Source of the DNA: Deltaproteobacteria bacterium GWC2_55_46
GTDB taxonomy: Bacteria; Desulfobacterota; GWC2-55-46
Direction of reading: 5' to 3'
Assembly (NCBI GenBank): GCA_001595385.3
Contig: LVEI03000001.1
Location: 1,021,501 to 1,085,500 of the forward strand
Length of the DNA stretch: 64,000 nucleotides
Position numbers and translations under genes: made by a program. The notes beneath the pieces are model-generated. The model did no database searches. It was not told the DNA's origin and saw only the letters and a program-made list of their open reading frames with translations. This document shows positions 4,978 through 50,713 of the stretch, one piece after another; within the stretch, counting starts at the first letter, position 1, and the number at the start of each line of letters is the position of its first letter.

Positions 4978-6885
4978 ATGCGTAAATTTCGGAGTGAGAC
5001 AGCATCACCATACAACATTCCTAGACCTCCTTTTCGTCGCCTGCGAATTTATTCGATTGACCCAAGCCTTGCCCACAGCCTTGAAACCATCGAAATCCGC
5101 GAGGCACGCATTGAACTCCCATGGGAATCAAGCCCGGATGATGAAAAACATGACGGTCCCGCGCCTGGACCGCGAGGTGAGTACCTTGATATAATAGACT
5201 ATGATCCTTCTACAGATGCCTTTTACAAACCGGTCGACCTGAATGATCCTTATCTCCTAGCGCAGGATGGACTTGCACCCTCCGACGGTAATCCTCAGTT
5301 TCACCAGCAGATGGTATATGCGGTAGCTATGAGAACAATTCGAAATTTTGAAGTTGCACTTGGAAGGCGTGCCTTATGGGCCCCCCGCCGATGGGTTGAC
5401 GAAAGCGGTGCTTATCGTGAAGAGTATGTGTCACAACTTCGCATATACCCTCATGCATTGAGAGAAGCAAATGCCTATTACAGCCCTGAAAAGAAAGCTT
5501 TACTTTTTGGATATTTTCAGGCAGCACCGACAGATGTAACGGATCACTTGCCAGGTGGAGTTGTGTTTACTTGTCTTTCACATGATGTCGTTGCACACGA
5601 GACAGCGCACGCGCTACTCGATGGTATGCATCGGCGGCTCACCGAACCGAGTAATCCTGACGTACTCGCTTTTCATGAGGCCTTTGCCGATGTTGTCGCT
5701 CTCTTTCAACATTTTTCACTTCCGGATGTCGTCCGACACCAGATCAGCAAGACAAGGGGTGACCTGAAAGCAGACAATCTTTTGGCTAAGCTCGCTCGTG
5801 AGTTCGGCCGGGCTATTGGGAGAACAGATGCCTTGCGCAGCGCGATCGGCAAGACTCCCGACCCAGCAATGATTGATCGAGTCACTGAGCCACACGAGCG
5901 CGGTGCCATCCTCGTCGCAGCTGTTTTTGATGCATTCCTTGCAATCTATAATCGCCGAACTGCTGATCTTTTTCGATTGGCAACCCATGGTTCAGGCATG
6001 CTTCCTGAAGGAGCTATTCATCCTGACCTTGTTTCAAGACTCTCCACTGAAGCGGCGAAGGCTGCACAACATGTACTCACTATATGCATTCGAGCGCTTG
6101 ACTATCTCCCGCCAGTAGATGTCACATTTGGCGACTACCTGCGTGCGTTGATCACAGCTGATTTCGACCTTGTTCCTAATGATAGTCTTGGGTATCGCGT
6201 GGCTTTCATGGAGGCATTTAGGCGGCGGGGTATCTATCCAAGAGATGTACGTACTTTGTCAGAAGAAAGCCTGATCTGGGAAGGGTCAAATCTTACATCG
6301 AATATAGAAAATCCCCAGATAATTCTTGGCAGTGATGTGAAACTTCAGATGCAAAATTGGAACTTGAGCGGACTTCGGCAAGACATATATCATAAATTGA
6401 AAGAAGCTCGTGAGGAAGCTCACACCATAATAGAGCGAACACGCCACTATAAAGAACGACTAATAAAAGGACTGGATTTTGAGCGCAAATTTGAGGTCCA
6501 TTCCATTCGACCTGTACGCCGATCGGGACCAGATGGTCAACTCCTTTTAGATATGGTAGTTGAAATAACCCAGCGGACACCCGGGTTTCTCGACCTACCT
6601 TTAGGCCAATGTCAAAAAGATCTTCAGTCTAATCAGGGACCTGACTTCTGGTTTCGCGGCGGATGTACGCTCATTGTTGATCTGGAAACTGGCAAACTGC
6701 GTTATTGCATTTACAAGGATATCAATAGTGAACGACGATATGATCGCCAACGCGCGTTTGTAGATGGGATGAGTGCTGCGCCGTCTCTTAGCGAAACCTA
6801 CTTTGGGATAACGGGCTATCGTGAGCGAGATGAGGTCTTTGCCTTTGTACATCGTATTCGCGGAGAGGAGAACAAGTGCGACTAA
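4978..6885 (+). CDS. gluzincin-type zinc metallopeptidase
   Basis: This 635-residue protein contains the zinc-binding motif HETAH (about 207-211) in VVAHETAHALLDGMHRR. A second motif, FHEAFADV, follows, with the third-ligand Glu at about 234 and a conserved Asp at about 238. The HExxH plus E spacing of 23 residues and the ExxxD pattern indicate a thermolysin-like (gluzincin) peptidase. No signal peptide or membrane segment is seen, so action in the cytoplasm is likely. The C-terminal half, about residues 400-635, is of unknown function. It overlaps the following MBL gene by 10 bp, so the two are co-expressed. The start ATG has only a weak ribosome-binding site. Codon use and base composition are AT-richer than the host genes. 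The substrate is unknown. Confidence 0.75.
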   Translation: MRKFRSETASPYNIPRPPFRRLRIYSIDPSLAHSLETIEIREARIELPWESSPDDEKHDGPAPGPRGEYLDIIDYDPSTDAFYKPVDLNDPYLLAQDGLAPSDGNPQFHQQMVYAVAMRTIRNFEVALGRRALWAPRRWVDESGAYREEYVSQLRIYPHALREANAYYSPEKKALLFGYFQAAPTDVTDHLPGGVVFTCLSHDVVAHETAHALLDGMHRRLTEPSNPDVLAFHEAFADVVALFQHFSLPDVVRHQISKTRGDLKADNLLAKLAREFGRAIGRTDALRSAIGKTPDPAMIDRVTEPHERGAILVAAVFDAFLAIYNRRTADLFRLATHGSGMLPEGAIHPDLVSRLSTEAAKAAQHVLTICIRALDYLPPVDVTFGDYLRALITADFDLVPNDSLGYRVAFMEAFRRRGIYPRDVRTLSEESLIWEGSNLTSNIENPQIILGSDVKLQMQNWNLSGLRQDIYHKLKEAREEAHTIIERTRHYKERLIKGLDFERKFEVHSIRPVRRSGPDGQLLLDMVVEITQRTPGFLDLPLGQCQKDLQSNQGPDFWFRGGCTLIVDLETGKLRYCIYKDINSERRYDRQRAFVDGMSAAPSLSETYFGITGYRERDEVFAFVHRIRGEENKCD

Positions 6886-8249
6886 AGGCACCTTCTGATG
6901 GTTGCGTGGTCCGTATGTATCGTCACGGCCTCGGAGATTGTTTTCTTCTTGCTTTTGGTACCAAGAATAAAGAACAGAAATACGTATTGATCGATTGTGG
7001 GGTATTACTTGGAACCGAGGATGCCACTTCTGTTATGAAGCAGGTTGTAAGCGACATACGTGAAGCAACAGGAGGGCATCTCGATATACTTGTTACTACT
7101 CATGAGCATTGGGATCACATTTCTGGCTTCATGCAAGCGCAAGAAGAGTTCAATAAGATAGCAGTAGACCAGGTGTGGTTTTCATGGACTGAAGACCCTA
7201 AAAACCCGCTGGCACGGGAGCTACGAAACCGCCGCAAATTAGCACTGGACACCTTAGGGCTGGCGCTCAAACGCCTTCACACTTCGCAGTCGATGTACGC
7301 AGCTCGCATTCAAGGTATATGGGAATTTTTTGGAACTGAATTGGGAGCTGCCAGCTTTAGAACTGAGGAGGCGCTTGACTGGATTAAGAAGAAGTGGACC
7401 GATCATCGATACTGCAAGCCGGGTGACGAACCATTAACGATTACGGGACTCCCTAATGTTCGTTTCTTTGTGCTTGGCCCGCCCACCGATCGCAAGTATA
7501 TCCGCAAAAACAGCCCTGTAAAAGGCGAAGTATATTTGGGTGATCGTCCCGGTAGTGAACTGGGATTATATTTAAAAGTGCTCGGCACATTTGAAACACC
7601 TGAAAGGCGATTTCCTGATCAACGAGATGAAGGTGCCCCTTTTAACCCTGCTTATGTCTGTAATCCTAATGAGCACACAATTAGCGACCTTTATGAAAGG
7701 TACCGCTCTGAAAAATGGCGCACAATCGATACAGACTGGCTCGGAACAGCGGGGGAACTCGCCCTCCAGCTTGATGCTCATACGAACAATACGAGTCTTG
7801 TGCTTGCGATTGAACTCTCACCAGGTGGGCATGTACTTTTGTTCCCCGGTGATGCGCAGGTTGGCAATTGGCTTTCGTGGGACGATGTAACATGGTCTGG
7901 CAAATACAATCAGGTCACAGCCCAAGATCTTCTTTCCCGGACGGTATTATACAAGGTCGGTCATCACGGCAGCCATAATTCGACTTTGAAAGAGAAGGGA
8001 CTCGAAAGAATGACAAGCTCAGAACTCGCAGCACTCATCCCTGTTAACCGTAAAATGGCAGTAAAAAAGAAATGGCGCATGCCGTACAAGCCCCTATGGG
8101 ATCGACTTGCGGAGCTAACTTCAGGGAGAGTAGTTCTTTCCGATCAAGGGCTGCCATCGGCCAATGGGAATGATTCACTGAAGGAATTTCTTCAAGTTTA
8201 CACAGAAACTGAGCTATTTATAGATATAAAGATAAAGGGTCAGTCCTAA
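6876..8249 (+). CDS. metallo-beta-lactamase fold hydrolase (ComEC-like MBL domain)
   Basis: This 457-residue protein starts with a beta-strand typical of stand-alone ComEC/Rec2-like MBL proteins (RHGLGDCFLLAF, YVLIDCG). It carries the full metal motif THEHWDH (HxHxDH, about 76-81), a later LLFPGDAQ (bridging Asp) and VGHHGSHNS (distal His). An intact di-metal site is therefore expected. The GTG start lies inside the end of the peptidase gene, preceded by GGAGAGGAG. The large insert between the first motif and the GDAQ motif is longer than in minimal MBL hydrolases. Relatives include nucleases and phosphodiesterases, but the substrate cannot be told here. It forms a translationally coupled pair with the gluzincin peptidase. 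Confidence 0.8.
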   Translation: MRLKAPSDGCVVRMYRHGLGDCFLLAFGTKNKEQKYVLIDCGVLLGTEDATSVMKQVVSDIREATGGHLDILVTTHEHWDHISGFMQAQEEFNKIAVDQVWFSWTEDPKNPLARELRNRRKLALDTLGLALKRLHTSQSMYAARIQGIWEFFGTELGAASFRTEEALDWIKKKWTDHRYCKPGDEPLTITGLPNVRFFVLGPPTDRKYIRKNSPVKGEVYLGDRPGSELGLYLKVLGTFETPERRFPDQRDEGAPFNPAYVCNPNEHTISDLYERYRSEKWRTIDTDWLGTAGELALQLDAHTNNTSLVLAIELSPGGHVLLFPGDAQVGNWLSWDDVTWSGKYNQVTAQDLLSRTVLYKVGHHGSHNSTLKEKGLERMTSSELAALIPVNRKMAVKKKWRMPYKPLWDRLAELTSGRVVLSDQGLPSANGNDSLKEFLQVYTETELFIDIKIKGQS

Positions 8250-8617
8250 AATTTCATCCCTTCTGATATTCTGAAAAGCAAACGCCTGAGAAACATTCCC
8301 ACCATTCTATTGCTCGAAAATAAGCAATATTAGTCTTCTTAATCGCTTTCTGCAGCATTGCTCATGTTTAGCGCACATCTGAGCTTTCCCGCTTGTACAT
8401 ATATTGTGGTTGCGAGCTTGACCAGCCACTATATTTTGTGGTATCCTTACGCATGGCTGCACATAACAGCGGAAAGAAAAGAATACTTGATGGTAATCAT
8501 GAAAGCACCTGATGATTAAGTACCTAATCAGTGCCTCGCTTTGACAGTTGAGCTAAGCTTCACTGAGAGGGCTCAAAAAGACCAAAACAGCAATTCGCAC
8601 TAAGGAGGGACTGTATT
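8250..8617. other. intergenic region inside the island, no gene seen
   Basis: No open frame longer than about 20 codons with a start signal is present; I looked specifically for a small ubiquitin-like gene and found none. It contains the promoter listed at 8418-8447 and a strong ribosome-binding site, AAGGAGGG, just before the GTG at 8618. Confidence 0.55.
8418..8447 (+). promoter_or_regulatory. sigma-70-type promoter for the MBL / E2-E1-JAB operon
   Basis: TTGACC is followed after 18 bp by TATCCT. The predicted start is about 165 nt upstream of the GTG at 8618, which leaves a long leader. The E2-E1-JAB operon can therefore be transcribed separately from the peptidase-MBL pair. Confidence 0.45.
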
Positions 8618-9754
8618 GTGCACCAAATTGTATTTTATCCTGTGGGCAATGGGGACACGAGCCAAATCATTCTAGACAATGGGAAGCGGCTACTTTTCGA
8701 TTACAGGCACATCAAAAAAACTGAGGATGGTACTGGTCCAGAAATTAACTTAAAGGACAGACTCAAGGATGAGCTGAAGAAGGCAAAAAAGGATGCTTTT
8801 GATGTTGTTGCATTTACGCATGGCGACAAGGACCATATCGAAAATAGTACGGAGTTTTTCGAATTACTTCATACCGAGAAATATCAGGGTGAAGGACGCA
8901 TTAAGATTAACGAGCTCTGGGTACCGGCTGCGATGATATTGGAAACAGCTACTAATGATGAGCAGAGCGACGAGTTTGTCATATGGAGGCAGGAAGCTCG
9001 CCATCGGTTTAAGGAAGGAAAAGGGATTAGGGTTTTCTCAAAACCTGAAAAATTAAAAGATTGGCTTGAAGAAAATGGTCTTAGTCTCGATTCTCGCCGT
9101 CACCTCATCACCGACGCTGGCCAGATCGTGCCGGACTTCACTATCGACAATGACGGAGTTGAATTTTTCTGTCACTCCCCATTCATCAAACATGTTGATG
9201 AGAGTGAGGAACTTCGCAACGAAGCCGCGCTCATATTCAATGTTCGGTTCAAGGCTGGCAATAATACATTTGATTATCTGGCAGTCGGAGACTCACGGTG
9301 GGACATCCTGGAAGATATTGTCCAGACGACGAAAGACCATAACCACAAAGATCGCCTGAACTGGGATATTTATAGTATCCCTCACCACTGCAGCTATCTT
9401 GCCTTGAGTGACGAAAAAGGTGAAACGGAAACATCTCCAAATCCCCTGGTGGAGGAATTGCTTCAATTCGGCAAAGAAGGAGCCTATATTGTAAGTTCCA
9501 GCGGTCCAGTTGAAGACTCCAAAACCGGACGTGAACAAAAACAACCGCCACATATTCAAGCCAAGAAATGTTACGAAAAATACCTTAAGCAGGTTAACGG
9601 CGCGAAGCTTCTGATTACCATGGAAGAGCCAAATACTGACAAGCCAAAGCCCATCGTCTTCAAAATTGACAAGGATGGTATAACAAGGGGTGACAAGGCA
9701 ATCATGTCTGCCGCTGCAATCATTACATCCTCTCCTGCTCCGAGGGCCGGTTAA
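8618..9754 (+). CDS. metallo-beta-lactamase fold protein with HxDxDH motif and C-terminal Gly tail
   Basis: This 378-residue MBL-fold protein starts at GTG after AAGGAGGG. The first metal motif reads THGDKDH (residues 67-73), so the second His of HxHxDH is Asp. YLAVGDSRWD supplies the bridging Asp and YSIPHHCSY the distal His, so a modified di-metal site is likely. The last 15 residues (from about 364) are small and flexible and end in APRAG, a C-terminal glycine. The stop codon abuts the GTG of the E2-E1-JAB gene with no gap, so the two proteins are made together. Whether this protein is the hydrolase partner, the conjugated protein or a deconjugation aid is not known. Confidence 0.75.
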   Translation: MHQIVFYPVGNGDTSQIILDNGKRLLFDYRHIKKTEDGTGPEINLKDRLKDELKKAKKDAFDVVAFTHGDKDHIENSTEFFELLHTEKYQGEGRIKINELWVPAAMILETATNDEQSDEFVIWRQEARHRFKEGKGIRVFSKPEKLKDWLEENGLSLDSRRHLITDAGQIVPDFTIDNDGVEFFCHSPFIKHVDESEELRNEAALIFNVRFKAGNNTFDYLAVGDSRWDILEDIVQTTKDHNHKDRLNWDIYSIPHHCSYLALSDEKGETETSPNPLVEELLQFGKEGAYIVSSSGPVEDSKTGREQKQPPHIQAKKCYEKYLKQVNGAKLLITMEEPNTDKPKPIVFKIDKDGITRGDKAIMSAAAIITSSPAPRAG

Positions 9755-12028
9755 GTGGCGGTCGAACACATTCTCATCGGAGAAGCATTCTTAGATCTCA
9801 ACCCTGGCCATCTTACTCTTCCGGTTGCTTTACAGACATTATCTGCTTGCGTAGAACACCATGACTTTGAGGTTGTTGAACTCCGTTCTTTAAAAAGGAC
9901 TGATGGCAAGGTTTCTGAAATTATTGTTGTAGATTGTATAAATGATCAAGTCCCGTCTCGTAATCCAGTCGGTATAAAAGTAAGAGAGCGCCTTGCTCTT
10001 GTTTTTACCCCCTGGCAGGCTCCTGAAGTTAGAGTTCTCCGCAAGGATTTCCCGGAAGAGGTTCCACACCTTAACTATGTTGGTTTAGGGCAGCCCGCAT
10101 GGCTCTGTATTTATTTCGAACCTTGGAGTACAGTGGAGCGTACCTGGACGCCCCAGAAGTTCTTGCGTCGGATTCTCTGGTGGCTCTCAGAGACGGCAGA
10201 AGGAACGCTTCATAGAGAAGACCAGCCTCTGGAAAGAATTTACTACGATAGCCCGTTGGATATTGTTCTTCCACCCGACTTTAAAGACAAAATACAGGAT
10301 ACCCATAGCTCTTTTACCTGTGTCTCCGTTGAGCGCTCAGCAGAAGACATCAAGGTCATACGAGGTATATTTGTCCCAAAGACTGGGAAGCCGGAACATA
10401 AAATATTCCGAACTGAAGTGCTCATGCTTGAGCTACTTCCGGTCATACATGGAACCATGGAGGTTTTCCCAAGGACGCTAGGACAGTTTCATGATCAGAT
10501 TGAGCGTCGAGGTGAGGAATTCATAAGCAAACTCAAAGATCTCGTTAAGGGAAAAATTCCTCCAGCCGGGCTGACTCGTGATCCACAGGCCCGCTGCCTG
10601 CTTATATTCTCTATCCCTGTAAAACGGAACGCGGATGCTGATCCTGAATCTCACGAGGTGCGGGCATTCCTTATAGCCCAGGATCTTGCGATACTTGGTG
10701 CAACTCTCGGCGTCTTGACTGCTCATAATGGCAAATTCTACTCTATACCAATAATAGGCGCGCCTGATGGAGACAGCTTTACAAAATGGCGCGAGATGGA
10801 AGTCATACCGGTACAAGTAAAAAATGAACCGGATAAAACTTTTGCTCGCAAAGCTTCAGGAATTCAAGAGGACACAGCAGACTTTAAAGGCGTCCTTTTA
10901 GGTCTCGGCGCGCTTGGTAGCGCATTAGCTGAATTATGGAGCAAGGAATTTTGGGGAGAATGGACTTTCATAGACCCCGAGACTTTTGAACCACATAACA
11001 TAATTCGCCACGTCGGTAAAAACCAACATATTGGTCGATTCAAAGTAGATGTTGTAAAAGATGTGGTGGAAGCAAATTATCACCTAAATAACTATTATCG
11101 AGTTGAGGCCATTGCTGACAGTGCTACAAATAGGGCCAACGGTCGAATAGAAGATGCCATTTCGGGTGCTGACCTGCTTGTCGATGCGACTACCACACTA
11201 GATGTTCCCCGGGATTTGTCTCAGCGTGACGGCAAATCTCGCTCCGTATCGGTCTTTCTTACGCCTTCTGGTGAAGGTTCAGTGCTTCTACTTGAACCTG
11301 CCGATCTCAGCTTACGACTCGACTCATTAGAGGCCCAGTATTACCGTGCCATCCTCAATTCTGATTGGGGATGGACCCATTTGCAAGGTCATATGGGAAT
11401 GCTATGGGTTGGCGCTGGGTGTCGTGATATATCAGCTGTAATTTCAAATGAGTCTATTCAACTTCATGCGGCCGTTATCGCAAGGCAGGTTCGCGTACTT
11501 CGCGACAAACCCGAACCGCGCATCCGGATTTGGTCGCAAGAATCGGATACCGGAGCCTTGATTTCTCATGACATTCCAGTTCAAAAAAAGATACAGGCTG
11601 TCTGTGGAGAATGGAACGTCATATGGGATGCAGCATTCTATCAGAAACTCTGCTCCATGAGACATGCACACCTTCCAAACGAAAGCGGTGGCATTGTGCT
11701 GGGATACATTGACCAAAAACTTAAGTCCATTTATATTGTAGATGCTCTGTCGGCTCCACCAGACAGCAGCTCAGACAGGACTGGATTCACCAGGGGCGTT
11801 GAAGGCCTTGCTGCTGCTTTAAATGACGTCGCCCGCCGCACTGCTAATATCGTAGGTTACATTGGCGAGTGGCATTCACATCCATCTTTTACCTCAGCTT
11901 ATCCGAGTGGTTTTGATAGGGCCCTCCTTGAATCACTTGCTAAAACATTAGCTTTAGAAGGGCAGCCTGCCTTAATGATCATTGTGGGCAGCGGGGGCGA
12001 AATATCTATTGCCGTGAAGGAAGGATAA
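9755..12028 (+). CDS. E2-E1(ThiF)-JAB triple-fusion ubiquitin-like conjugation protein
   Basis: This 757-residue protein combines three activities. Residues about 1-170 look like a bacterial E2-like domain: QPAWLCIYFEPW with candidate catalytic Cys118, then a WL.ET.EG.LH..DQPLE segment seen in bacterial E2 proteins. Residues about 370-590 are an E1/ThiF Rossmann domain with GLGALG (383-388), FIDPETFEPHNIIRH (Asp408, Arg418) and LLVDATT (Asp477). Residues about 630-757 are a JAB/JAMM peptidase with Glu643, HSH (707-709), Ser718 and Asp721, the full zinc motif. Charging, transfer and removal of a ubiquitin-like modifier thus sit in one chain. Bacterial E1/E2/JAB operons act in phage defence in CBASS (Cap2/Cap3) and Bil systems; a defence role here is inference. 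The GTG start follows the MBL stop directly. Cys556 is one candidate for an E1 cysteine. Confidence 0.85.
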   Translation: MAVEHILIGEAFLDLNPGHLTLPVALQTLSACVEHHDFEVVELRSLKRTDGKVSEIIVVDCINDQVPSRNPVGIKVRERLALVFTPWQAPEVRVLRKDFPEEVPHLNYVGLGQPAWLCIYFEPWSTVERTWTPQKFLRRILWWLSETAEGTLHREDQPLERIYYDSPLDIVLPPDFKDKIQDTHSSFTCVSVERSAEDIKVIRGIFVPKTGKPEHKIFRTEVLMLELLPVIHGTMEVFPRTLGQFHDQIERRGEEFISKLKDLVKGKIPPAGLTRDPQARCLLIFSIPVKRNADADPESHEVRAFLIAQDLAILGATLGVLTAHNGKFYSIPIIGAPDGDSFTKWREMEVIPVQVKNEPDKTFARKASGIQEDTADFKGVLLGLGALGSALAELWSKEFWGEWTFIDPETFEPHNIIRHVGKNQHIGRFKVDVVKDVVEANYHLNNYYRVEAIADSATNRANGRIEDAISGADLLVDATTTLDVPRDLSQRDGKSRSVSVFLTPSGEGSVLLLEPADLSLRLDSLEAQYYRAILNSDWGWTHLQGHMGMLWVGAGCRDISAVISNESIQLHAAVIARQVRVLRDKPEPRIRIWSQESDTGALISHDIPVQKKIQAVCGEWNVIWDAAFYQKLCSMRHAHLPNESGGIVLGYIDQKLKSIYIVDALSAPPDSSSDRTGFTRGVEGLAAALNDVARRTANIVGYIGEWHSHPSFTSAYPSGFDRALLESLAKTLALEGQPALMIIVGSGGEISIAVKEG

Positions 12029-12224: not shown

Positions 12225-13943
12225 TTATTTTTTCTTTCTAACCTTAGCATTTTGAGGATAAGGCTTAATCCGTGTTACTGCAACATCGAAGCCCATCGCA
12301 CGCATATTTGTGACGCGTTCTATCAAATCTACTTTAGCAAAGGTAGAGAGTGCTCCTTTTAGCACTTCGGATGTTGCCGTGGCTCTGTCCGCAACTAAAT
12401 GAGATTTCGTATCATCAAAAATCGCAAAGACCACACTCATTTCATGACGTTGATATTGCTTTAGGGAGCGAAGAGTTCTCTTCCCCTTTGCTGCGATAGA
12501 ACCATTAGCACTAGTCAATTGCCCGTTGTAAATCTTGTCCCGAAATTCGACACTCTCTGAATATAACTTAGCGGATACAAAACCCTGTGCGAAAAGCGCA
12601 CGCAGAGCTGCGCCTGTAGCATGTTTTACGTGTACCAATAATATACCATTTGTGGATATATTAAGTAGATCACAGAATTCTATACCGCCCCTTTCATTCG
12701 CAATTTTGACCAAGTGGCGGTCCATCACAAGCATGTTCTTGTGTGCTGCATTAAAATCCTTCTCTTCGGGAAATTTTAATTTGTCCCACTCTTCAAGCCC
12801 AATCTCAATTGGGTTGAGACATTTGATATTGTCCAACTCTTTGGAGATCGTAGTAATGAACTCTTCGCTAGCCCTGTACCACTTTTGATTGTTCAAGAAA
12901 TAAATGTCATTGTTATGCTCAATATCGCCACACAAAAAGTAAGATAGGGAGCGTACTTCGCACGCCCCATCGTCAAAATCAACTTTCAGATTCATCCGAC
13001 GAAAGGCCTCGCAACGCTCACGCACCGAGCTCATATTTGAAAGAAGCTCACGAACATGCTCAAATACACCATCAAACGTATTCGCCTCATACTTGCGACG
13101 GTTGAAGTGAATTTCATAACTTACAACTCTGTCAGGAAGATATCCAATATCCTCGTTATCAAGAAACAAAGTATGCATTTCATCAGCATTGTATTTGCTC
13201 AAAGTATCTATTAGTCTAATCTCTAGCTCTTTAAAAAGCTCACCACCAGCCTTCTTACCAATGTATTCTAATTGTGGAATCGTAATCTTATTAAATCCTA
13301 GCGTGACAAGCCTATCTACTTCGACAAGAAATGTTATTATATCCTTAAATCGCTTTCGGCCATTCACAGTCAGAGCGTCACTGGCTTGGATACTATGCCC
13401 AATTTTTGCTTGTAGTGGATTTTGTTTTTGCAATGTTCCACGCACGTGGGTCAACACTCTTTTTAAATTGTTTATGTCGCCATGAGGATTATAGATCCCT
13501 CGAAACACTCTATCTAGTAAGTTAACAATTCCGCCTGTATCTTTTTGTGACAATCCACGTAACTCCGGCAAAGAAAGAATCCTTTGTGCCAGTTCAATCC
13601 CGAATCTATGCTCAATTGACATGTGTTTTCGCAGATGAATATGGCCAATCCCTCCAGTAACACCGTAAAGAGATGTTCCGATTTGAACAATGAGAATAAA
13701 TCCTGACACTATCGTTTTAGGAATATCTTTCTTTTCAAGCTGAAGATTCAAAGGCAAAAAGACAGGCATCCAACCGGTTTGATGGGGGTCGCTTTTATAA
13801 AAAAACAAACGATATTGGTATGCTTGCTCATCCACCAGATAGGTATCGCTGCTGACTAATTTGTATGATGGAATCACAACCGAATCAAGTGTGCTTTCAG
13901 TTATTCTATAAACAGTCAATTTCTGAATAGTATTATCTGGCAT
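12225..13943 (-). CDS. DUF6119 / TIGR04141-type sporadically distributed protein
   Basis: This 572-residue protein matches my memory of the DUF6119 (TIGR04141) family in its start (KLTVYRITE) and above all in its C-terminal third. There GIEFCDLL is followed by GILLVHVKH and ALRALFAQGFVSAKL (about 421-460). The E..D / xVK arrangement (Glu422, Asp425, Lys440) resembles a PD-(D/E)xK nuclease core, but that is only a visual similarity. Family members occur patchily, often near mobile or defence genes. It is the last gene of a minus-strand operon led by the phosphoesterase and stands convergent to the E2-E1-JAB gene. No membrane or signal segment is seen. Confidence 0.65.
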   Translation of the reverse strand: MPDNTIQKLTVYRITESTLDSVVIPSYKLVSSDTYLVDEQAYQYRLFFYKSDPHQTGWMPVFLPLNLQLEKKDIPKTIVSGFILIVQIGTSLYGVTGGIGHIHLRKHMSIEHRFGIELAQRILSLPELRGLSQKDTGGIVNLLDRVFRGIYNPHGDINNLKRVLTHVRGTLQKQNPLQAKIGHSIQASDALTVNGRKRFKDIITFLVEVDRLVTLGFNKITIPQLEYIGKKAGGELFKELEIRLIDTLSKYNADEMHTLFLDNEDIGYLPDRVVSYEIHFNRRKYEANTFDGVFEHVRELLSNMSSVRERCEAFRRMNLKVDFDDGACEVRSLSYFLCGDIEHNNDIYFLNNQKWYRASEEFITTISKELDNIKCLNPIEIGLEEWDKLKFPEEKDFNAAHKNMLVMDRHLVKIANERGGIEFCDLLNISTNGILLVHVKHATGAALRALFAQGFVSAKLYSESVEFRDKIYNGQLTSANGSIAAKGKRTLRSLKQYQRHEMSVVFAIFDDTKSHLVADRATATSEVLKGALSTFAKVDLIERVTNMRAMGFDVAVTRIKPYPQNAKVRKKK

Positions 13944-13986
13944 ATTCGTTCACTTTCTAGAATTCTTCAGAGGTTTATTTTTTAAT

Positions 13987-15027
13987 CTATAGTGGTGCAT
14001 TCTTATTTATCGGGTCACCGAGGCCATAAAGTAACGGTTTTGTATTGCTTCCACGGAACAACGCAACAACAGTTCCGGAACGCAGGTTTTTATCCCTGTG
14101 GCCGGTGAACTTCATCCCCTTGCCTTTTTCTTTTCTAATATCCTCCACCGCCATAACAGTGAGTGCATGGGGAAAACCATGCCTTGAATTGTTATCACAA
14201 GATGCGATGGTGTATCGAGGAAGAAGCGTCTCAAGCACTTCCAGTGAGATGCCATGCTTACTCATATGGTGCGGCACCTTCAGCACCTGGCATCGAAGCG
14301 GTCGATGTTTGATGACATCAGGGTTGATCATCTGTCCCCTATTCTGTGTTCGCTGCAGTTCAGGAAACTCATCTGTGATTCGTGCCCAAGCATCAAACTG
14401 TGCATCCCCACCAAGTATGACTGTATTTTGTTTAAGTCGTTCATTTTCGGCGAGGTCCTTTTCCGATGCTTCATCAGTACTTAGGTAGTATGGAGCTATA
14501 TCTTGAGGGGGGTATTCCATCTTTAATACAATCGAGGCGTTATTAATATTCGTACCGAACGTGTCGTAGCGGTTTTTGAGATGGATGGAAGGGCTGAGGA
14601 CCAGCACACGCACCTGGTTTATAGTGGTTTCATAGCCACTCGTAGGGTAGACAGTCTTTATTGAATTTTCTCGGAGCATTTTAATGATGTCATAGTGTGT
14701 CTTGGAAACATGGCGGAAACCACTGTCCCAAAACTGTTCCGGAACCAAGTTGTTCTTCAAGCACCACGTAAGCAGTTTTGACATACCTCTTGTATGGTCG
14801 AAATGTGGATGGGTTGCACAGATGAATGGGATGGTCTCCGGCTCCAGCGCCTCCAGAGCGGCGATCGTCTTTTCGGCATCGTAACAATCCACGACCGCAC
14901 AGGCTTTCTTTCCATGAATTGGGGGAAACCGTACTATTATGGCATCACCGTCGCCGACATTAAGAACTACGATAGCAAGAGTGCTTTTTGTCATGTTCTT
15001 CTTCAGTAGCTTTCCAGCGTCAGCCAT
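13987..15027 (-). CDS. metallo-beta-lactamase fold hydrolase (ComEC-like), third of the island
   Basis: This 346-residue MBL protein has the N-terminal VLNVGDGDAIIVRF, an acidic VVDCYD strand, the complete metal motif THPHFDH (HxHxDH, about 73-78), VILGGDAQFD (bridging Asp) and LKVPHHMSKHG (distal His). The NVGxGD start and overall plan are those of stand-alone ComEC/Rec2-type MBL proteins. It starts 2 bp after the stop of the unknown gene at 15030-15593, so translational coupling is likely. DUF6119 follows after 43 bp. An internal ATG 12 codons in is a possible alternative start. The substrate is unknown; phosphodiester bonds in nucleic acid or nucleotides are plausible for this subgroup. 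Confidence 0.78.
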   Translation of the reverse strand: MADAGKLLKKNMTKSTLAIVVLNVGDGDAIIVRFPPIHGKKACAVVDCYDAEKTIAALEALEPETIPFICATHPHFDHTRGMSKLLTWCLKNNLVPEQFWDSGFRHVSKTHYDIIKMLRENSIKTVYPTSGYETTINQVRVLVLSPSIHLKNRYDTFGTNINNASIVLKMEYPPQDIAPYYLSTDEASEKDLAENERLKQNTVILGGDAQFDAWARITDEFPELQRTQNRGQMINPDVIKHRPLRCQVLKVPHHMSKHGISLEVLETLLPRYTIASCDNNSRHGFPHALTVMAVEDIRKEKGKGMKFTGHRDKNLRSGTVVALFRGSNTKPLLYGLGDPINKNAPL

Positions 15028-15029
15028 GC

Positions 15030-15593
15030 TTATCTTTCCCCTTTCTTGCTTTGTATCGGGTTCTGATTTTTGAATTTTTCTTCGACCGTCTTTATTATTT
15101 CATCCAATTCCTTCTTATCGGCAGTCATTTTGACCGCCGAGAGTTTATAGAATTCCTTTTTAATTTCTGTCCTGGCATTTTCCTTTGATTTGTCTGCTGA
15201 GTGAATCAAGTGCATTTTAGAGGCAACTTCTCTTGGAAGTGGCTTTTTATACCTGAAGTCTAGTTTTGTACCATACTTACTGGTAAGCTGGGAGCCATCC
15301 GCTATTAAGAAGACATCACCTTCTCTTAGATGCTTCGTCGAAGGAAATCCAACAAACGCTTCGACCTGCCAGGCCTTTATAAAGTATTCCCGTTCGCTAT
15401 TCCACGCTCCAATGCTCAGGTCCACTGCAGCACTCTTTCGAGTCTTTTTCGCACGGAGAAGTCGTACAGTACCGTCATCGAATATTTCGTCTACAACAAC
15501 GCGCTCAGACTTTGCGGTTGGTTGAAGGCGTGAGGCATTCTTCTTGGTTATAGTTGCCTTTTGCGTAGGCTTCGTGTTCTTTTTGACAGCCAT
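15030..15593 (-). CDS. hypothetical protein, island-specific, lysine-rich ends
   Basis: I do not recognise this 187-residue protein. The first 30 residues are Lys/Thr-rich and probably disordered. A compact middle (about 30-125, VVVDEIFDDGTVRLLRAKK, FIKAWQVEAFVGFPSTKHLREGDV cut here into pieces) looks like a small beta-rich domain. The last 50 residues are charged and helical, possibly coiled. It has no Cys/His metal site and no membrane segment. It lies between the phosphoesterase (18-bp gap) and the MBL gene (2-bp gap), so it is probably an accessory or scaffold subunit of that operon. Confidence 0.5.
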   Translation of the reverse strand: MAVKKNTKPTQKATITKKNASRLQPTAKSERVVVDEIFDDGTVRLLRAKKTRKSAAVDLSIGAWNSEREYFIKAWQVEAFVGFPSTKHLREGDVFLIADGSQLTSKYGTKLDFRYKKPLPREVASKMHLIHSADKSKENARTEIKKEFYKLSAVKMTADKKELDEIIKTVEEKFKNQNPIQSKKGER

Positions 15594-15611
15594 AGTCTCC
15601 CCTCTCAGCAG

Positions 15612-16655
15612 TTAAATGATTTTCTCTTTAACATTTCCCTTGAGGTCTAACTCGTAGAGCTTTATTGGTTCTCCGGATTCAGGATTATCATTTGTGACAA
15701 TAAAGGAACCGGCTCTACCTAAACTCTTATCCTCGATGAAACTTCCGTCATTCCACACGTCAATGTCTTTTTGGATCAGACGATTTTCATGTCCTAATGC
15801 CTTAGTGCTCTTACGACCTGGCTCGTGAGTATGACCGAATATAAATACATCGGGTCGCTTTTTACGGAAGTAGAGGAGGTACATCTCGATGGCTCTTAAC
15901 ATCTTGGCATTTATAGGTTGGTTTCTGAGTTTGCCGAAGATGTCGATAAGTCCGCTAAGTGCCTTATGGGCTTTGTCTACGAACTCTCTAGTCCCCTTTA
16001 GATAAGAGACAGCATTAGCCACTGCCTGATATTGGGCGGTGCCTATGAAGAATTTTCTGACTGCCTTAGCTTCGTTGCCTCCTTCTTTTTGAACAAGTTC
16101 ATCTAAGCTTTTAAAAAGCGCTTGCTGGTCGTCAAGGTAATGCCCATGCGTGACGAGGACTGAACAGCCAGCCAAGTCAAATTCGTGATCCGGGTATATT
16201 ACTTCAAATTTGTCCCGCATTCTTTGGGGGGCTATACCACGGATGAAAGGCTGTGAGAAGGTCGCTTCAATAAGCGGTAGGTCTGTTGGTACCTTCCCCT
16301 GTGAAATAGGCTGTACGAAGGCTTTATCAGTGGAAAGTATGTTCCATATGATGTAGTCATGGTTCCCAGGAATGTAAACAATTCGCCCGACATCTAATCC
16401 ACCATCTTCCAGCAGATAAGAAAGCCATGTACGAAACCCGATTTGCTTAGGCCATGATCCAGTTCCTTTCAGCCCTTCAATAGCCTTAGTTAGTGATGAA
16501 ATATTTGCATCCAATATATCTCCTGCCAGGATGATCTCATCTATTCGCCCTAACCCTTGCAAGAAACTACGTAAGCCTTGCGTTACTAGCTTTCTCCGTA
16601 GCGAACATAGTGGATCTCCAAAATGTAGGTCAGAAAAAATTACTCGAATTGACAT
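15612..16655 (-). CDS. calcineurin-like metallophosphoesterase
   Basis: This 347-residue protein has the family motifs in order: FSDLHFGD (Asp9, His11), LAGDILD (Asp46), IPGNHDY (Asn98, His99), VTHGHYLD and IFGHTHEPGR. A complete two-metal site is therefore present. I start it at ATG 16655 because it follows AAGGAGAAGGGG and begins the family homology directly; the longer frame to 16691 adds 12 unrelated residues. It is the first gene of a four-gene minus-strand operon (phosphoesterase, unknown, MBL, DUF6119). Substrates in the family range from phosphoproteins to nucleotides and DNA ends. Confidence 0.83.
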   Translation of the reverse strand: MSIRVIFSDLHFGDPLCSLRRKLVTQGLRSFLQGLGRIDEIILAGDILDANISSLTKAIEGLKGTGSWPKQIGFRTWLSYLLEDGGLDVGRIVYIPGNHDYIIWNILSTDKAFVQPISQGKVPTDLPLIEATFSQPFIRGIAPQRMRDKFEVIYPDHEFDLAGCSVLVTHGHYLDDQQALFKSLDELVQKEGGNEAKAVRKFFIGTAQYQAVANAVSYLKGTREFVDKAHKALSGLIDIFGKLRNQPINAKMLRAIEMYLLYFRKKRPDVFIFGHTHEPGRKSTKALGHENRLIQKDIDVWNDGSFIEDKSLGRAGSFIVTNDNPESGEPIKLYELDLKGNVKEKII

Positions 16656-16758
16656 GGCCCCTTCTCCTTGCAATGCACAGAGAGTGCACAAAATTACTGA
16701 TGAATTATTCTCTTTTCAGGTTATTCCCCTTTTAGCGATTTTCGAGACAATCGCATTT

Positions 16759-17208: not shown

Positions 17209-18138
17209 TTACCAAAAATATAGTTTTTCCTCATCCACACCGGTATCGAGGTTCCAGTTCCTTATATACTCGGTACAATTGCTTTGTTGATTTTCCTCTA
17301 TGTCTTTGAAAAGCTTATCCCAGGTCTTAACGACCTCATTGACTGCCATTTCGAAGGCATCTATAAAATCACCCCGTCTCCCACCAGGGAAGCTCGTATT
17401 TGTGAGGTATGTGTTTTTTTCGTAGTCTGTTATCGAGCCTGTCATCTTATAAGCGAGATTTGCCTCTTCACCTATATGCCTGAAAATAGGTATGGGGGTT
17501 GAGGCTAATTCTATTTTGGAGAGGAAGCCCTTATGCCAATCGTCTGGATTTATGTACCTGAATTTATCTTTTCCATCAGGATGGCTCATTTCAAGCGTCT
17601 TGGTCCAGAATGAATCTAGCGCTGGATTTATATTCCCGGTATCGTCCTCTGAGCACATCTTAATCAAACGAGTATAGTCAGCATAACTTATCTCGACCTT
17701 TTTAATCTCCTTGAATATGAAACTATCTTGTATCATTTCGCAGTGCCTGTGCTCAGTTGAGTTAAAAATATACGGACCCACTATGGCATTGACTACTGGA
17801 TGTATTACCGTATCAGCAATAAGATGAGTTACATAACCGCAAAGCCACGGCAGGCATACCTTGAACTCTTCTTTATCCTTAAGATTCTGAAGGTTTTTAA
17901 TTCCTTCTATGACGAACCCGCCTGTATTTTCATAATGCATTCTGTCAGCCCAGCTATGGAGTTTTAGAATATTGTTTTTCAGCTCACTCAGATAAGGGTA
18001 ATCCGGCCCTACAGATCCAAGCATGACAAAATGGTTATTCATCAAGAGGTTCGAAAAATATTTATGCTTAGAGGGGAGCCTGTTGAATTTATCCAGTGCC
18101 TTTTCGACAACCATCCAATGCGTAAATGTTCCGGCCAT
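17209..18138 (-). CDS. zinc-dependent phospholipase C-type protein (PF00882-like)
   Basis: This 309-residue protein has the features of the Zn-dependent phospholipase C / S1-P1 nuclease-like fold (PF00882): N-terminal MAGTFTHWMVVEKAL with an early His, LGSVGPDYPYLSEL, LHSWADRMHY, and LCGYVTHLIADTVIHPVVN with the H..AD..HP signature. These His and Asp residues are expected zinc ligands. No signal peptide is present, so it is either cytoplasmic or exported in another way. It leads the pair with the lipoprotein gene. The real substrate is open, since many family members are uncharacterised. Confidence 0.65.
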   Translation of the reverse strand: MAGTFTHWMVVEKALDKFNRLPSKHKYFSNLLMNNHFVMLGSVGPDYPYLSELKNNILKLHSWADRMHYENTGGFVIEGIKNLQNLKDKEEFKVCLPWLCGYVTHLIADTVIHPVVNAIVGPYIFNSTEHRHCEMIQDSFIFKEIKKVEISYADYTRLIKMCSEDDTGNINPALDSFWTKTLEMSHPDGKDKFRYINPDDWHKGFLSKIELASTPIPIFRHIGEEANLAYKMTGSITDYEKNTYLTNTSFPGGRRGDFIDAFEMAVNEVVKTWDKLFKDIEENQQSNCTEYIRNWNLDTGVDEEKLYFW

Positions 18139-18172: not shown

Positions 18173-19225
18173 TTCAATAGCGAAGTGCAACACTTGGGAG
18201 AGCAGGAAGGAAGATGCTATCCTAAGTGGCTATGCCGAAAAGAGAATATGTTCACCTGTCTTTGTCTGAAAGAGACTTAATAACCACCATGCTTGCCGAG
18301 GAGAAGTCCCTCGGGGAAATAGCCAAGGCCCTCGGAAGAAGCAAGAGCACTGTCTCACGGGAACTTCGCCGCAATGCAACGCCTGCGTATCGGCTCTACA
18401 TGTCCCACAGGGCACACGGCAGAGCCGAAGAGAGAAAGAAACAGGCCAATACGCATCAGAGGCTCAAGAACGAGAGCATCGAGGCCTATGTGCGCTCCAT
18501 GCTCAAGGATGGCTGGTCGCCGGAGCTAATAGCTGGGAGAATCGAGATCGACCAGCCGGGGCTCTCAATAAGCCACGAGGCCATTTACCAGTACATCTAC
18601 CATCCTGACACAAAAGACCGTCAGGAGCTTATACGGTGCCTCAGGAGGGCACACCGCAAGCGAAGGAACAAAGGCATCGGCAGAAAAGAGCGTAAGACCA
18701 AGATACCCAACCGCGTTCCCATAGACCAGCGGCCTCAAGCCGTTGAAAGTCGCATCCAGTTCGGCCACTGGGAAGGCGACAGCCTGGTCTCCAGAAAGAG
18801 CCTTGCAGCCCTCAACTCCTTGGTGGAGCGCAAGAGCAGGTATCTTATGCTTACCAAGCTCGACGCCAAGACAGCGGAGGCCACCTATAATGCCGTTGTG
18901 GAGAGACTCGGAGACCTACCGTCAAAGGCCAGACGGACCATGACCTTCGATAACGGCACCGAGAATTCAAGGCATGAGGCCATTACATCGGCAATAGGCA
19001 TCAAGTGCTACTTCGCGCGCCCCTACGCCTCATGGCAGCGCGGCACAAACGAACATGTAAACGGCCTCATCAGGTGGTACTTGCCCAAGGGCACCGACTT
19101 CAGTAAGATAACGGACGACCAGATCGCCAGAATCGAGTTCTTAATCAACAACAGACCCAGAAAATGCCTGGGCTTCAAAAAACCAATCGAAGTAGCTGCT
19201 CCCTTCGTTGCACTTCGAGGTTGAA
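18173..19225 (+). mobile_element. IS30-family insertion sequence, apparently complete
   Basis: One transposase frame is bounded by imperfect terminal inverted repeats of about 19 bp: TTCAATAGCGAAGTGCAAC at 18173-18191, and at 19207-19225 a sequence whose complement reads TTCAACCTCGAAGTGCAAC. No convincing target duplication is visible. The element is GC-richer than the island around it, like the host genes. Confidence 0.8.
18226..19224 (+). CDS. IS30 family transposase
   Basis: This protein of about 330 residues has an N-terminal helix-turn-helix (LGEIAKALGRSKSTVSREL) followed by an IS30-type DDE domain. Visible catalytic regions are FGHWEGDSLV, TFDNGTENSRHEA and ASWQRGTNEHVNGLIRWYLP, with the DDE residues in the expected order. 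The frame can start at GTG 18226 or ATG 18232; the latter gives MPKREYVHLSL, a more usual IS30 start. Its stop codon lies inside the right inverted repeat. No frameshift is seen, so the enzyme is probably active. Confidence 0.92.
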   Translation: MAMPKREYVHLSLSERDLITTMLAEEKSLGEIAKALGRSKSTVSRELRRNATPAYRLYMSHRAHGRAEERKKQANTHQRLKNESIEAYVRSMLKDGWSPELIAGRIEIDQPGLSISHEAIYQYIYHPDTKDRQELIRCLRRAHRKRRNKGIGRKERKTKIPNRVPIDQRPQAVESRIQFGHWEGDSLVSRKSLAALNSLVERKSRYLMLTKLDAKTAEATYNAVVERLGDLPSKARRTMTFDNGTENSRHEAITSAIGIKCYFARPYASWQRGTNEHVNGLIRWYLPKGTDFSKITDDQIARIEFLINNRPRKCLGFKKPIEVAAPFVALRG

Positions 19226-48141: not shown

Positions 48142-49821
48142 ATGACGCGCTCTGTTCATTCCATTGTGCTCTTACTGGCGCTCGCGTTTGTCCCCAACCA
48201 TGCGCTCGGAGCGGATCTATCCAGTTTGAAGCGGCCTGTCTCAGTCGAAATAACAGGCATCGAGGCCTCCACCGATGAAAGCGGCACCTCGATCTCCATA
48301 AGTCTTTCAGGAAGACCCGATTACAGCATAAGGTCGCAGATAAGCATCTCTGCCATCCACATCGAGATTAAAAACGCCGCGCTCTCACCCAATATCCCGA
48401 AGCTCATCGATGTATCGGACGGCAGGGTCGTCGATATCTCGGCCCTGGAAGCAGGAAAGGGGCGCTCCAGGATAACCATAAAAACGAATCCGGGGATGAA
48501 CTACAAGGTCGTTTCTGATACGGGCCCGGGTTCCGTAATAAATATCTATGTCGAGCCGCCGCCGGCTCTTTACAAACCAGAGACATCTTCACCCAGGGCA
48601 TCATGGGGCACATCCCTTGACTTGAGCGGCTATCTCAAAAACGAGACCGCGTACAGGATATCCGACCCTGAGGAGTTCACCAAAATACGGAATACCATTT
48701 ACCTGGCATTGACCGGAACGCTTTCAGAGCATATAAGCTACAAGGCAAGCGGCAGGGCCTTCTATGACGCGGTCTTCGGCCTTACTGACAATTATCCTCA
48801 ATCCGTAGAGGACGACCAGGAATCAGAGGCTGACCTGAGGGAGACCTATCTCGACATTTCAGCTGGTGACTGGGATGCAAGGCTCGGAAGACAGAACATA
48901 GTCTGGGGCGAGGCCGTGGGCCTTTTCTTCGCTGACGTGGTCAATGCCAAGGATTTGCGTGAGTTCGTGCTGCCAGACTTTGATTACATAAGGATACCCC
49001 AGTGGGCTGCCGACATAGAATACACCAAAGACGCAATACATCTTGAGCTGGTCTGGATACCAGTGCTGGATTTCAATAAGCTCGGCGGGACAGGCTCCGA
49101 ATTCCCCATGGCAGTGCCGGTGCCCGACGGGGTCGCGCCTGCCATACTCGACACCAGGGAGCCGGCAAACGGGCTTGAAAACAGCGAGCTTGGGGCCAGG
49201 GCATCTTACCTGGTGAACGGGTGGGACTTAAGCCTTTTCCACCTTTATGCCTGGGACAAGTTTCCCGCCATGGAAAGAGAAGTCCTTTCGCCGGCACTCT
49301 ACCTCTTTTCACCAGACCACAGGAGGATAAATATAAGCGGCCTTACCTTCTCAAAAGAAATAAACGACGCTGTGCTCAAAGGCGAGTTCGTCTATTACAA
49401 GGGCAAAAACTTTTCGGTAATAGACGCGGGTGACGATGACGGATTGGTCAAAAAAGATTACATCGACTACCTGGTGGGCGTTGATTATACATTTTTCGAC
49501 AAACTCGACTTCAACTTCCAGTTCATGCAGCGCGTCATTTTCGGCTTCGAAGACAGGATATTCAGGGAGGAGAGAGTGCGCTCCTCTGTTTCGGTATGGT
49601 TAAAGACCGGCTTCCGGGAGGATAGTATCGAACCTGAGCTACTCGTAATAACAGGCCTGGACGAACTTGACATGCTGATACGTCCGAGTCTCTCTTTCAA
49701 ATTGTTTGAAGGCCTTCAGGCAAAGCTCGGCCTCGACATATTCGAAGGTCCGGTCGATGGCATATTCGGCCAATACCGCGACAGTGACAGGGTCTATGCG
49801 GAGGCGAGATATGACTTCTGA
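48142..49821 (+). CDS. outer-membrane beta-barrel protein: AMIN-like plus DUF1302-type domain
   Basis: This 559-residue protein has a signal peptide ending near ALGA. An AMIN-like domain follows (about 30-130: VSVEITGIEAS, TSISISLSGRPDYSIRS, SRITIKTNPG). The rest is a large DUF1302-like beta-barrel with the block ARLGRQNIVWGEAVGLFFAD, many amphipathic strands and a C-terminal aromatic residue (RYDF-end), which is the outer-membrane insertion signal. AMIN domains usually bind peptidoglycan or glycan; their fusion to a DUF1302 barrel is not something I remember as common. It overlaps the ThiF gene by 11 bp and likely forms the outer-membrane end of the ABC/LolA-like pathway. Confidence 0.75.
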   Translation: MTRSVHSIVLLLALAFVPNHALGADLSSLKRPVSVEITGIEASTDESGTSISISLSGRPDYSIRSQISISAIHIEIKNAALSPNIPKLIDVSDGRVVDISALEAGKGRSRITIKTNPGMNYKVVSDTGPGSVINIYVEPPPALYKPETSSPRASWGTSLDLSGYLKNETAYRISDPEEFTKIRNTIYLALTGTLSEHISYKASGRAFYDAVFGLTDNYPQSVEDDQESEADLRETYLDISAGDWDARLGRQNIVWGEAVGLFFADVVNAKDLREFVLPDFDYIRIPQWAADIEYTKDAIHLELVWIPVLDFNKLGGTGSEFPMAVPVPDGVAPAILDTREPANGLENSELGARASYLVNGWDLSLFHLYAWDKFPAMEREVLSPALYLFSPDHRRINISGLTFSKEINDAVLKGEFVYYKGKNFSVIDAGDDDGLVKKDYIDYLVGVDYTFFDKLDFNFQFMQRVIFGFEDRIFREERVRSSVSVWLKTGFREDSIEPELLVITGLDELDMLIRPSLSFKLFEGLQAKLGLDIFEGPVDGIFGQYRDSDRVYAEARYDF

Positions 49822-50713
49822 AAAAGAAGAGATATACTGGGAAGCCACGAAGAGGAACCTTGGGCTTTTTAGCGAACCCGAGCAGGAACGCCTGCGTAAC
49901 GCGCGGGTGGCTGTGGCGGGCCTCGGCGGCGTTGGCGGCATCCATCTCGTGACGCTTGCCAGGATGGGCATAGGAAACTTCAACATAGCCGACCATGACA
50001 TATTCGAGCCCGTGAACTTCAACCGCCAGTACGGGGCCAGCCTCGATACGGTCGGAAGGAGCAAGACCGATGTAATGCGAGAGACCGCCCTTTCCATAAA
50101 CCCTCTGGCTGGCATAAAGGTCTTCTCCGAAGGGATAGATGGATCCAACATCGACGAGTTTCTCGAAGGCGTGGACCTCGCGGTAGACGCTGTCGATTTT
50201 TTCGCCATCGACGCGAGAAGGCTCCTTTTCAACAAGGCCCGCGACAAGGGCATCTACGCCGTTACATCGGGGCCCATTGGCTTCGGCGCGACCCTTCAGG
50301 TCTTCTCCCCAACGGGGATGAGCTTCGATGAATACTTCGGCATCTCAGAAGGCATGGACTACGTGCGCAAAATGATAGCCTTCTCGGTCGGGCTTACGCC
50401 AAGGCCTCTCCACCTCGGTTATATGGACCTCTCAAAGGTAGATCTCAGGGCAGGCACAGGCCCGTCAATGGCCTCTGCGTGCGCTCTTTGCGCCAACCTT
50501 GTGGCAACAGCCGCAGTCGATATACTGCTCAACAGAAAGCCTGTCAAGGCAGCTCCGCATTACTTCCAGTTCGACCCCTACAGGCAGGTCTATAAGAAGG
50601 GCTATCTCTTCATGGGGGGGCGTAACCCGCTGCAGGCTTTCAAGAGATGGTTCCTGCGGCGCAAACTCAGACCCATGCTGGGAGGGGCGGATGGCAATGG
50701 GAACCGCGGCTGA
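49811..50713 (+). CDS. ThiF family adenylyltransferase (E1-like)
   Basis: This 300-residue protein is an E1/ThiF Rossmann protein with VAGLGGVGGIHLVTLARMG (GLGGVG at about 37-42), IADHDIFEPVNFNRQYG (Asp, Asn and Arg of the adenylation site) and LAVDAVDFF. I start at ATG 49811 after GGAGGCGAG; the longer frame to 49706 lies in the barrel gene. No CxxC zinc pair is seen. The nitroreductase-like gene overlaps it by 23 bp. A ThiF-nitroreductase pairing, fused in mycobacterial Rv1355c-type proteins, is known, but its reaction is unclear. It has no E2 partner here. Confidence 0.85.
   Translation: MTSEKEEIYWEATKRNLGLFSEPEQERLRNARVAVAGLGGVGGIHLVTLARMGIGNFNIADHDIFEPVNFNRQYGASLDTVGRSKTDVMRETALSINPLAGIKVFSEGIDGSNIDEFLEGVDLAVDAVDFFAIDARRLLFNKARDKGIYAVTSGPIGFGATLQVFSPTGMSFDEYFGISEGMDYVRKMIAFSVGLTPRPLHLGYMDLSKVDLRAGTGPSMASACALCANLVATAAVDILLNRKPVKAAPHYFQFDPYRQVYKKGYLFMGGRNPLQAFKRWFLRRKLRPMLGGADGNGNRG

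What the first reader, a model, noticed from the sequence alone, without database searches (positions are those of the whole stretch)
8618..12028. E2-E1-JAB triple-fusion conjugation protein coupled to an MBL-fold protein in a mobile island
One 757-residue chain holds a candidate E2 cysteine (118), a complete ThiF adenylation site (GLGALG 383-388, Asp408, Arg418, Asp477) and a complete JAMM site (Glu643, His707, His709, Ser718, Asp721). It is made from the base directly after the MBL stop codon. The operon thus holds writing and erasing of a ubiquitin-like mark plus a nuclease- or phosphodiesterase-like fold. Related E1/E2/JAB operons protect against phage (CBASS Cap2/Cap3, Bil), and MBL-linked variants have been noted in comparative genomics. 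The exact composition here, with a modified MBL, may be an uncharacterised defence type.
Basis: partly seen in the sequence, partly recalled or inferred. Interest (0 to 1): 0.85.

Follow-up and report, generated by a model that had tools for sequence, protein, structure and literature searches.

The report
Nuclease-fold protein tagged like ubiquitin
These two neighbouring genes are a copy of a known kind of bacterial anti-phage module (6A-MBL); comparing about 100 relatives suggests that the enzyme pair attaches the nuclease-like partner itself, through a conserved C-terminal Arg-Ala-Gly tail, to other molecules, the way ubiquitin is attached in our own cells.

Summary
Window 9755-12028 encodes a 757-residue E2-E1-JAB protein whose GTG start directly follows the stop of an MBL-fold gene (8618-9754), in a low-GC island; the MBL is absent from 29 other genomes of the family. 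The type is not new: Iyer et al. 2006 described it as operon type 6a, and NCBIfam names both proteins '6A-MBL' at nearly twice the cut-offs. The model matches E. cloacae Cap2 across E2 and E1.

The new evidence concerns the modifier. Type 6a has no ubiquitin-like gene, but the MBL ends in a disordered tail finishing PRAG. Of 105 MBLs of this family, nearly all beside a triple protein, 87 carry Arg-Ala-Gly within nine residues of the C-terminus (shuffled tails: mean 1.9, maximum 7; control MBLs 0 of 14). The motif persists between branches about 25% identical, in many codon spellings. I infer that the MBL is the conjugated cargo, as the cyclase is in type II CBASS, with JAB trimming extensions and reversing conjugation. 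A variable third gene suggests exchangeable effectors. Nothing was tested at the bench.

The parts
8600..8609 (+). Shine-Dalgarno-like sequence (ctaaggaggg) ahead of the MBL gene
   Evidence: sequence
8618..9754 (+). MBL-fold protein (6A-MBL enzyme), 378 aa, ComEC-like
   Evidence: NF058524 407 bits vs cut-off 220; model pLDDT 88.6; best PDB match ComEC MBL domain 9ic4
9695..9751 (+). disordered C-terminal tail of the MBL (residues 360-378)
   Evidence: pLDDT 37-47 over the last two blocks of the model; variable linker in the family alignment
9740..9751 (+). C-terminal Pro-Arg-Ala-Gly, proposed conjugation tail
   Evidence: RAG within 0-9 aa of the C-terminus in 87 of 105 MBLs; Arg376 and Gly378 invariant in the 53-sequence alignment
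9755..12028 (+). E2-E1-JAB triple protein (6A-MBL Cap2/3), 757 aa
   Evidence: NF058523 636 bits vs cut-off 320; Cap2-like fold
9863..10273 (+). E2 domain (residues 37-173) with active Cys118 (codon 10106-10108)
   Evidence: Prok-E2_A 3e-27; Cys118 in 99/99
10865..11581 (+). E1/ThiF adenylation domain (residues 371-609) with Cys556 (codon 11420-11422)
   Evidence: ThiF; Cap2 7tsq/7tsx at 2.1-2.2 A; Cys556 in 99/99
11636..11992 (+). JAB/JAMM isopeptidase domain (residues 628-746)
   Evidence: Prok-JAB; Cap3 9ild
15612..16691 (-). calcineurin-like phosphoesterase in the same island; possible displaced third gene (uncertain)
   Evidence: 37% identical over its length to the third gene of 6A-MBL operons L014 and L024

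Best explanation
The pair is a 6A-MBL system, an anti-phage module related to type II CBASS. The E1 domain adenylates the C-terminal glycine of the MBL protein (tail ...PRAG), passes it through Cys556 to Cys118 of the E2 domain, and conjugates the MBL to a target amine. The JAB domain trims MBL precursors that carry a short extension beyond the glycine and removes the MBL again. Conjugation places or switches on the MBL, a ComEC-like metal-dependent nuclease or phosphodiesterase; in many operons a third protein (patatin, membrane protein, second MBL or phosphoesterase) then acts as effector. Shown by sequence and model: domain content, catalytic residues, gene order, the conserved tail. Inferred: that the tail is the conjugation site, the order of transfer, the JAB processing, the MBL activity and the role of the third gene. 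Unknown: target and trigger.
For: Family membership by curated models. Cap2 fold across E2 and E1 with invariant active sites; among the best structural matches are Cap2 entries bound to the C-terminus of its cyclase (7tsq, 7tsx). Tail: 91 of 105 MBLs have R-x-G and 87 have RAG within nine residues of the end, against 8.8 and 1.9 in shuffled tails (maxima 19 and 7) and 31/780 and 2/780 background ORFs. The other 14 still have a glycine motif within nine residues of the end (HG, TYG, G[FY]G, TQG). At 50% identity the two large clusters (58 and 38 members) fall apart yet both carry RAG; members of the second are about 25-30% identical to the window MBL. 87 copies of xRAG are encoded by 64 different 12-mers using all six Arg codons, so the protein, not the DNA, is conserved. 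The tail is predicted disordered. None of 14 LmuA-type MBLs ends in R-x-G, nor do the other two MBLs of the window. Patatin and 2-4-TM third genes end in glycine in 0 of 46. Extensions of 1-9 aa after the glycine occur in about a third, as in ubiquitin precursors. Precedent: Cap2 conjugates the cyclase through its C-terminal Gly/Ala, conserved only in operons with Cap2 and Cap3 (Jenson 2023, PMC10097602).
Against: No biochemistry. The sequences are related, so counts are not independent events (43 clusters at 70% identity, 29 with R-x-G in every member). A minority has other tails (HG, TYG, GFG). A subgroup of the second, downstream MBLs also ends in glycine (11 of 15, in a different local sequence), so a terminal glycine alone is not diagnostic. 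In two genome loci with long upstream sequence no upstream MBL was found beside an intact triple protein (L057, L068). In this window no third gene follows directly. The source of the NCBIfam 'anti-phage' name was not found in the held literature.
Confidence: 0.78

Rival explanations
1. The triple protein conjugates a separate ubiquitin-like protein (the host's ThiS/MoaD or one encoded elsewhere) to targets, and the MBL is an independent effector.
For: Iyer et al. 2006 proposed use of endogenous ThiS/MoaD or an operon-encoded ubiquitin-like protein (PMC1779556). Bil and Bub, from general knowledge, use their own ubiquitin-like proteins.
Against: It gives no reason for a nearly invariant Arg-Ala-Gly at the end of a disordered MBL tail. 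No common small third gene recurs in the neighbourhoods. The fold is closest to Cap2, which conjugates a partner without a ubiquitin fold.
Confidence: 0.12
2. The conserved tail is a docking peptide by which the MBL binds the E1 groove (or another partner) without covalent transfer; the triple protein acts on the MBL only as a regulator.
For: Conservation and disorder would be the same for a docking peptide; extensions after the glycine are tolerated.
Against: All chemistry residues for adenylation, thioester transfer and isopeptide cleavage are kept in 99 of 99 apart from Asp477 in 95, and a glycine lies at or within nine residues of the end in every family member with a readable tail.
Confidence: 0.1

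Closest known systems
6A-MBL system (NCBIfam NF058523 + NF058524; operon type 6a of Iyer et al. 2006)
   Same: Same two proteins, same order, same architecture, scores nearly twice the curated cut-offs.
   Different: Nothing essential. This copy has no third gene directly downstream and sits in an island with two other MBL genes and a phosphoesterase.
Type II CBASS Cap2/Cap3 with CD-NTase
   Same: E2-E1 fold and catalytic residues, JAB/Cap3 isopeptidase, partner enzyme with a C-terminal glycine, patatin effectors in many relatives.
   Different: An MBL-fold protein stands in place of the nucleotide cyclase, JAB is fused to the E1, and the tail motif is longer (R-A-G) than the single Gly/Ala of the cyclases.
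Bil and Bub operons
   Same: Bacterial E1/E2/JAB-type conjugation modules with mobile, immune-type contexts.
   Different: They encode ubiquitin-like proteins (general knowledge); none is found here. Bub structures match the fusion more weakly than Cap2 does.
LmuA, Avs1a and RT-associated MBLs
   Same: ComEC-like MBL fold in defence operons.
   Different: Different partners, and no terminal R-x-G tail in the LmuA set (0 of 14); Avs1a and RT-associated MBLs were not sampled.

Membership tests
6A-MBL system | MBL protein scoring over the NF058524 cut-off | tested here: met
   407.3 bits vs 220
6A-MBL system | E2-E1-JAB protein scoring over the NF058523 cut-off | tested here: met
   635.6 bits vs 320
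6A-MBL system | adjacent genes, MBL upstream | tested here: met
   GTG directly after TAA; same order in most relatives
6A-MBL system | protection against phage | not testable with these tools
   only the NCBIfam name says so
Type II CBASS | Cap2-like E2-E1 with both catalytic cysteines | tested here: met
Type II CBASS | Cap3-like JAB isopeptidase | tested here: met
   fused rather than separate; 9ild match
Type II CBASS | CD-NTase nucleotide cyclase in the operon | tested here: not met
   no cyclase among the ten island proteins scanned with Pfam, PADLOC and NCBIfam
Ubiquitin-like conjugation system with its own Ubl (Bil, Bub, 6d, 6e) | beta-grasp ubiquitin-like protein encoded in the operon | tested here: not met
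   no such family among the island proteins; no common small third gene in the relatives
ComEC-type MBL nucleases | HxDxDH ... D ... HH metal-binding motif and fold | tested here: met
   H68/D70/D72/H73, D225, H256/H257 invariant; 9ic4 top structural match
ComEC-type MBL nucleases | nuclease activity | not testable with these tools
   needs a bench assay

The most novel reading that the evidence does not exclude
An MBL-fold nuclease is itself the ubiquitin-like modifier: it is matured at an Arg-Ala-Gly tail by a fused JAB protease, charged and conjugated by a Cap2-like E2-E1, and works in place of the CBASS cyclase as the core of a modular system with exchangeable effectors (patatin, membrane protein, second MBL, phosphoesterase).
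Probability: 0.5. Interest if true: 0.75.

Novelty: new member of a known kind. Interest (0 to 1): 0.55.

Why it matters
Type 6a operons have been known since 2006 without a known modifier. A conserved tail on the MBL answers that question with a simple, testable prediction and extends the Cap2 principle (conjugating an enzyme rather than ubiquitin) from a nucleotide cyclase to a nuclease-fold protein. That would show that bacterial conjugation machinery was re-used with unrelated cargo enzymes. I could not establish whether this has been reported in papers outside the held library.

Tried and rejected
A separate ubiquitin-like gene in the island: none found. An artefact of the downstream Shine-Dalgarno sequence overlapping the tail codons: rejected, because 64 different 12-mers encode xRAG. 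A degenerate MBL ('modified'): rejected, because HxDxDH is invariant in the family. The other two MBLs of the window as close paralogues of the 6A MBL: no convincing similarity, and neither carries the tail. Matches in the phage record collection: none. Viral contigs: L092-L094 and L097 hold near-complete relatives of the triple protein, L095 and L096 partial ones, L098 a divergent one with its MBL; L099-L103 share mainly the JAB or E1 part. Looking for an empty insertion site: the two flanking genes are not neighbours in a single-contig genome of the same genus, so no empty site could be defined. Solved structures of 6A-MBL proteins: no close hit. A paper using the term '6A-MBL': none held. 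Ledvina et al. 2023 and Gong et al. 2025 could not be read.

Full report
WHAT IS THERE. Two genes lie on the + strand, an MBL-fold protein (8618-9754, 378 aa) and a 757-aa fusion (9755-12028), the second starting at the base after the first stop. The fusion holds Prok-E2_A, ThiF and Prok-JAB in that order. NCBIfam identifies both as the 'anti-phage 6A-MBL system': NF058524 at 407 bits (cut-off 220) and NF058523 at 636 bits (cut-off 320). The composition was described as operon type 6a by Iyer et al. 2006, 'usually with two genes', a triple-module E2-E1-JAB protein and a specialised MBL (PMC1779556; [quoted passage not shown]). The locus is therefore a new member of a known kind.

CHECK OF THE RESIDUES. 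In 99 triple proteins Cys118 (E2), the GxGxxG glycines, Asp407, Arg418, Lys430, Cys556, Glu643, His707, His709, Ser718 and Asp721 are invariant, Asp477 96%. The patterns used to find relatives contained the JAMM and QYY motifs, so conservation of His707/His709 is partly by selection. The AlphaFold2 model (pLDDT 85.9) aligns with E. cloacae Cap2 over residues 18-609 (Z 26.6; large overall rmsd, as expected if the domains are placed differently) and over the E1 part alone at 2.1-2.2 A; the JAB part matches Cap3.

THE MBL. The model is confident (pLDDT 88.6) except mainly for residues 360-378, which are predicted disordered. Its nearest solved fold is the MBL domain of ComEC (9ic4). HxDxDH, D225 and HHCS are invariant in the 53-sequence alignment. 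The active site therefore looks intact; nuclease or phosphodiesterase activity is an inference from the fold.

THE TAIL. The protein ends in SSPAPRAG. In 105 MBLs of this family, nearly all checked to lie beside a triple protein, R-x-G lies within nine residues of the C-terminus in 91 and RAG in 87; 64 end exactly in glycine. Shuffling the last 30 residues of each gives means of 8.8 and 1.9 (maxima 19 and 7); of 780 other ORFs of the same loci, 31 and 2 qualify. The remaining 14 end in other glycine motifs such as HG, TYG and GFG (the L034 row of that table is a wrong ORF, its real tail is TPPRAGYAL). The linker before the motif is variable, while Arg376 and Gly378 are invariant in the 53-sequence alignment, which includes relatives only about 25% identical. 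The motif is written with 64 different 12-mers in 87 cases, so it is not a by-product of the next gene's ribosome site. About a third carry an extension of 1-9 residues after the glycine, and some carry the motif twice (KPPRAGLESRPLRAG in L055). Controls: 0 of 14 LmuA-type MBLs end in R-x-G, and neither do the two other MBLs of the window; patatin and 2-4-TM third genes end in glycine in 0 of 46. One complication: 11 of 15 second MBLs also end in glycine, in another local sequence.

MECHANISM. In type II CBASS, Cap2 conjugates the nucleotide cyclase through its C-terminal Gly/Ala, a residue conserved only where Cap2 and Cap3 are present (Jenson et al. 2023, PMC10097602). The same logic applied here makes the MBL the cargo: E1 adenylation of Gly378, transfer via Cys556 and Cys118, conjugation to a target, trimming and release by JAB. 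The chemistry steps are inferred from conserved residues; the target and trigger are unknown.

THIRD GENES. Of 109 loci with a complete 3' end of a triple (or triple-like) gene, 86 have a same-strand ORF of at least 100 aa within 220 nt, a few of them probably spurious. Single-linkage groups are patatin-like phospholipases (35), a second MBL (15), 2-4-TM proteins (11), small TM proteins, and a calcineurin-like phosphoesterase in the two close relatives L014 and L024. The window has no gene directly downstream on the + strand, but its phosphoesterase at 15612-16691 (- strand) is 37% identical to that of L014. A modular effector, as in CBASS, is a plausible reading and is not shown.

CONTEXT. 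GC falls from about 0.56 to 0.40-0.48 between roughly 4.3 and 20 kb, between polysaccharide-type genes and mnmA, a radical-SAM gene and rnc, with an IS30-type transposase at 18226-19224. The 6A MBL is found in none of 29 other genomes of the family. Plasmid relatives are numerous (271 records, 136 of them conjugative), and WYL regulators lie upstream in several. This supports horizontal transfer and a defence setting.

VERDICT. Observation confirmed; interpretation partly supported; system already named. The added value is the proposal, with statistical support but no bench test, that the MBL is the ubiquitin-like cargo. I could not tell whether this is already published outside the held library.

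Noticed in passing
window 4978-8249: A 635-aa protein without Pfam match, with a HETAHALLDG (HExxH-like) motif, overlaps the start of a second MBL gene (6876-8249). A homologue of that MBL (43%) also lies beside the 6A-MBL operon of a Hymenobacter plasmid (L128), so the neighbourhood recurs.
   Followed up: partly
window 12225-16691: On the - strand, a phosphoesterase, a 187-aa protein, a third MBL (13987-15027) and a DUF6119/TIGR04141 protein form an apparent operon; three dissimilar MBLs thus lie in one 12-kb island.
   Followed up: partly
L057:1962-2630: A truncated acetate-kinase-like reading frame ends in ...LPPRAG directly before the triple gene; the end of a lost MBL appears fused to it, a possible scar of deletion or insertion.
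   Followed up: no
L055, L064, L048, L082: MBL tails with the glycine motif twice (e.g. KPPRAGLESRPLRAG), perhaps alternative processing sites.
   Followed up: no
L057, L068 and relatives: The second MBL downstream of the triple gene ends in a conserved glycine (YTECYG, YTENNG) in 11 of 15 cases and may be a second cargo or simply a conserved fold end.
   Followed up: no
window 49706-50713: A second ThiF-family protein (335 aa), probably an ordinary MoeB/ThiF enzyme, outside the island.
   Followed up: no
window 17209-18138: A zinc-dependent phospholipase C family protein (PF00882) at the edge of the island next to the IS30-type transposase.
   Followed up: no
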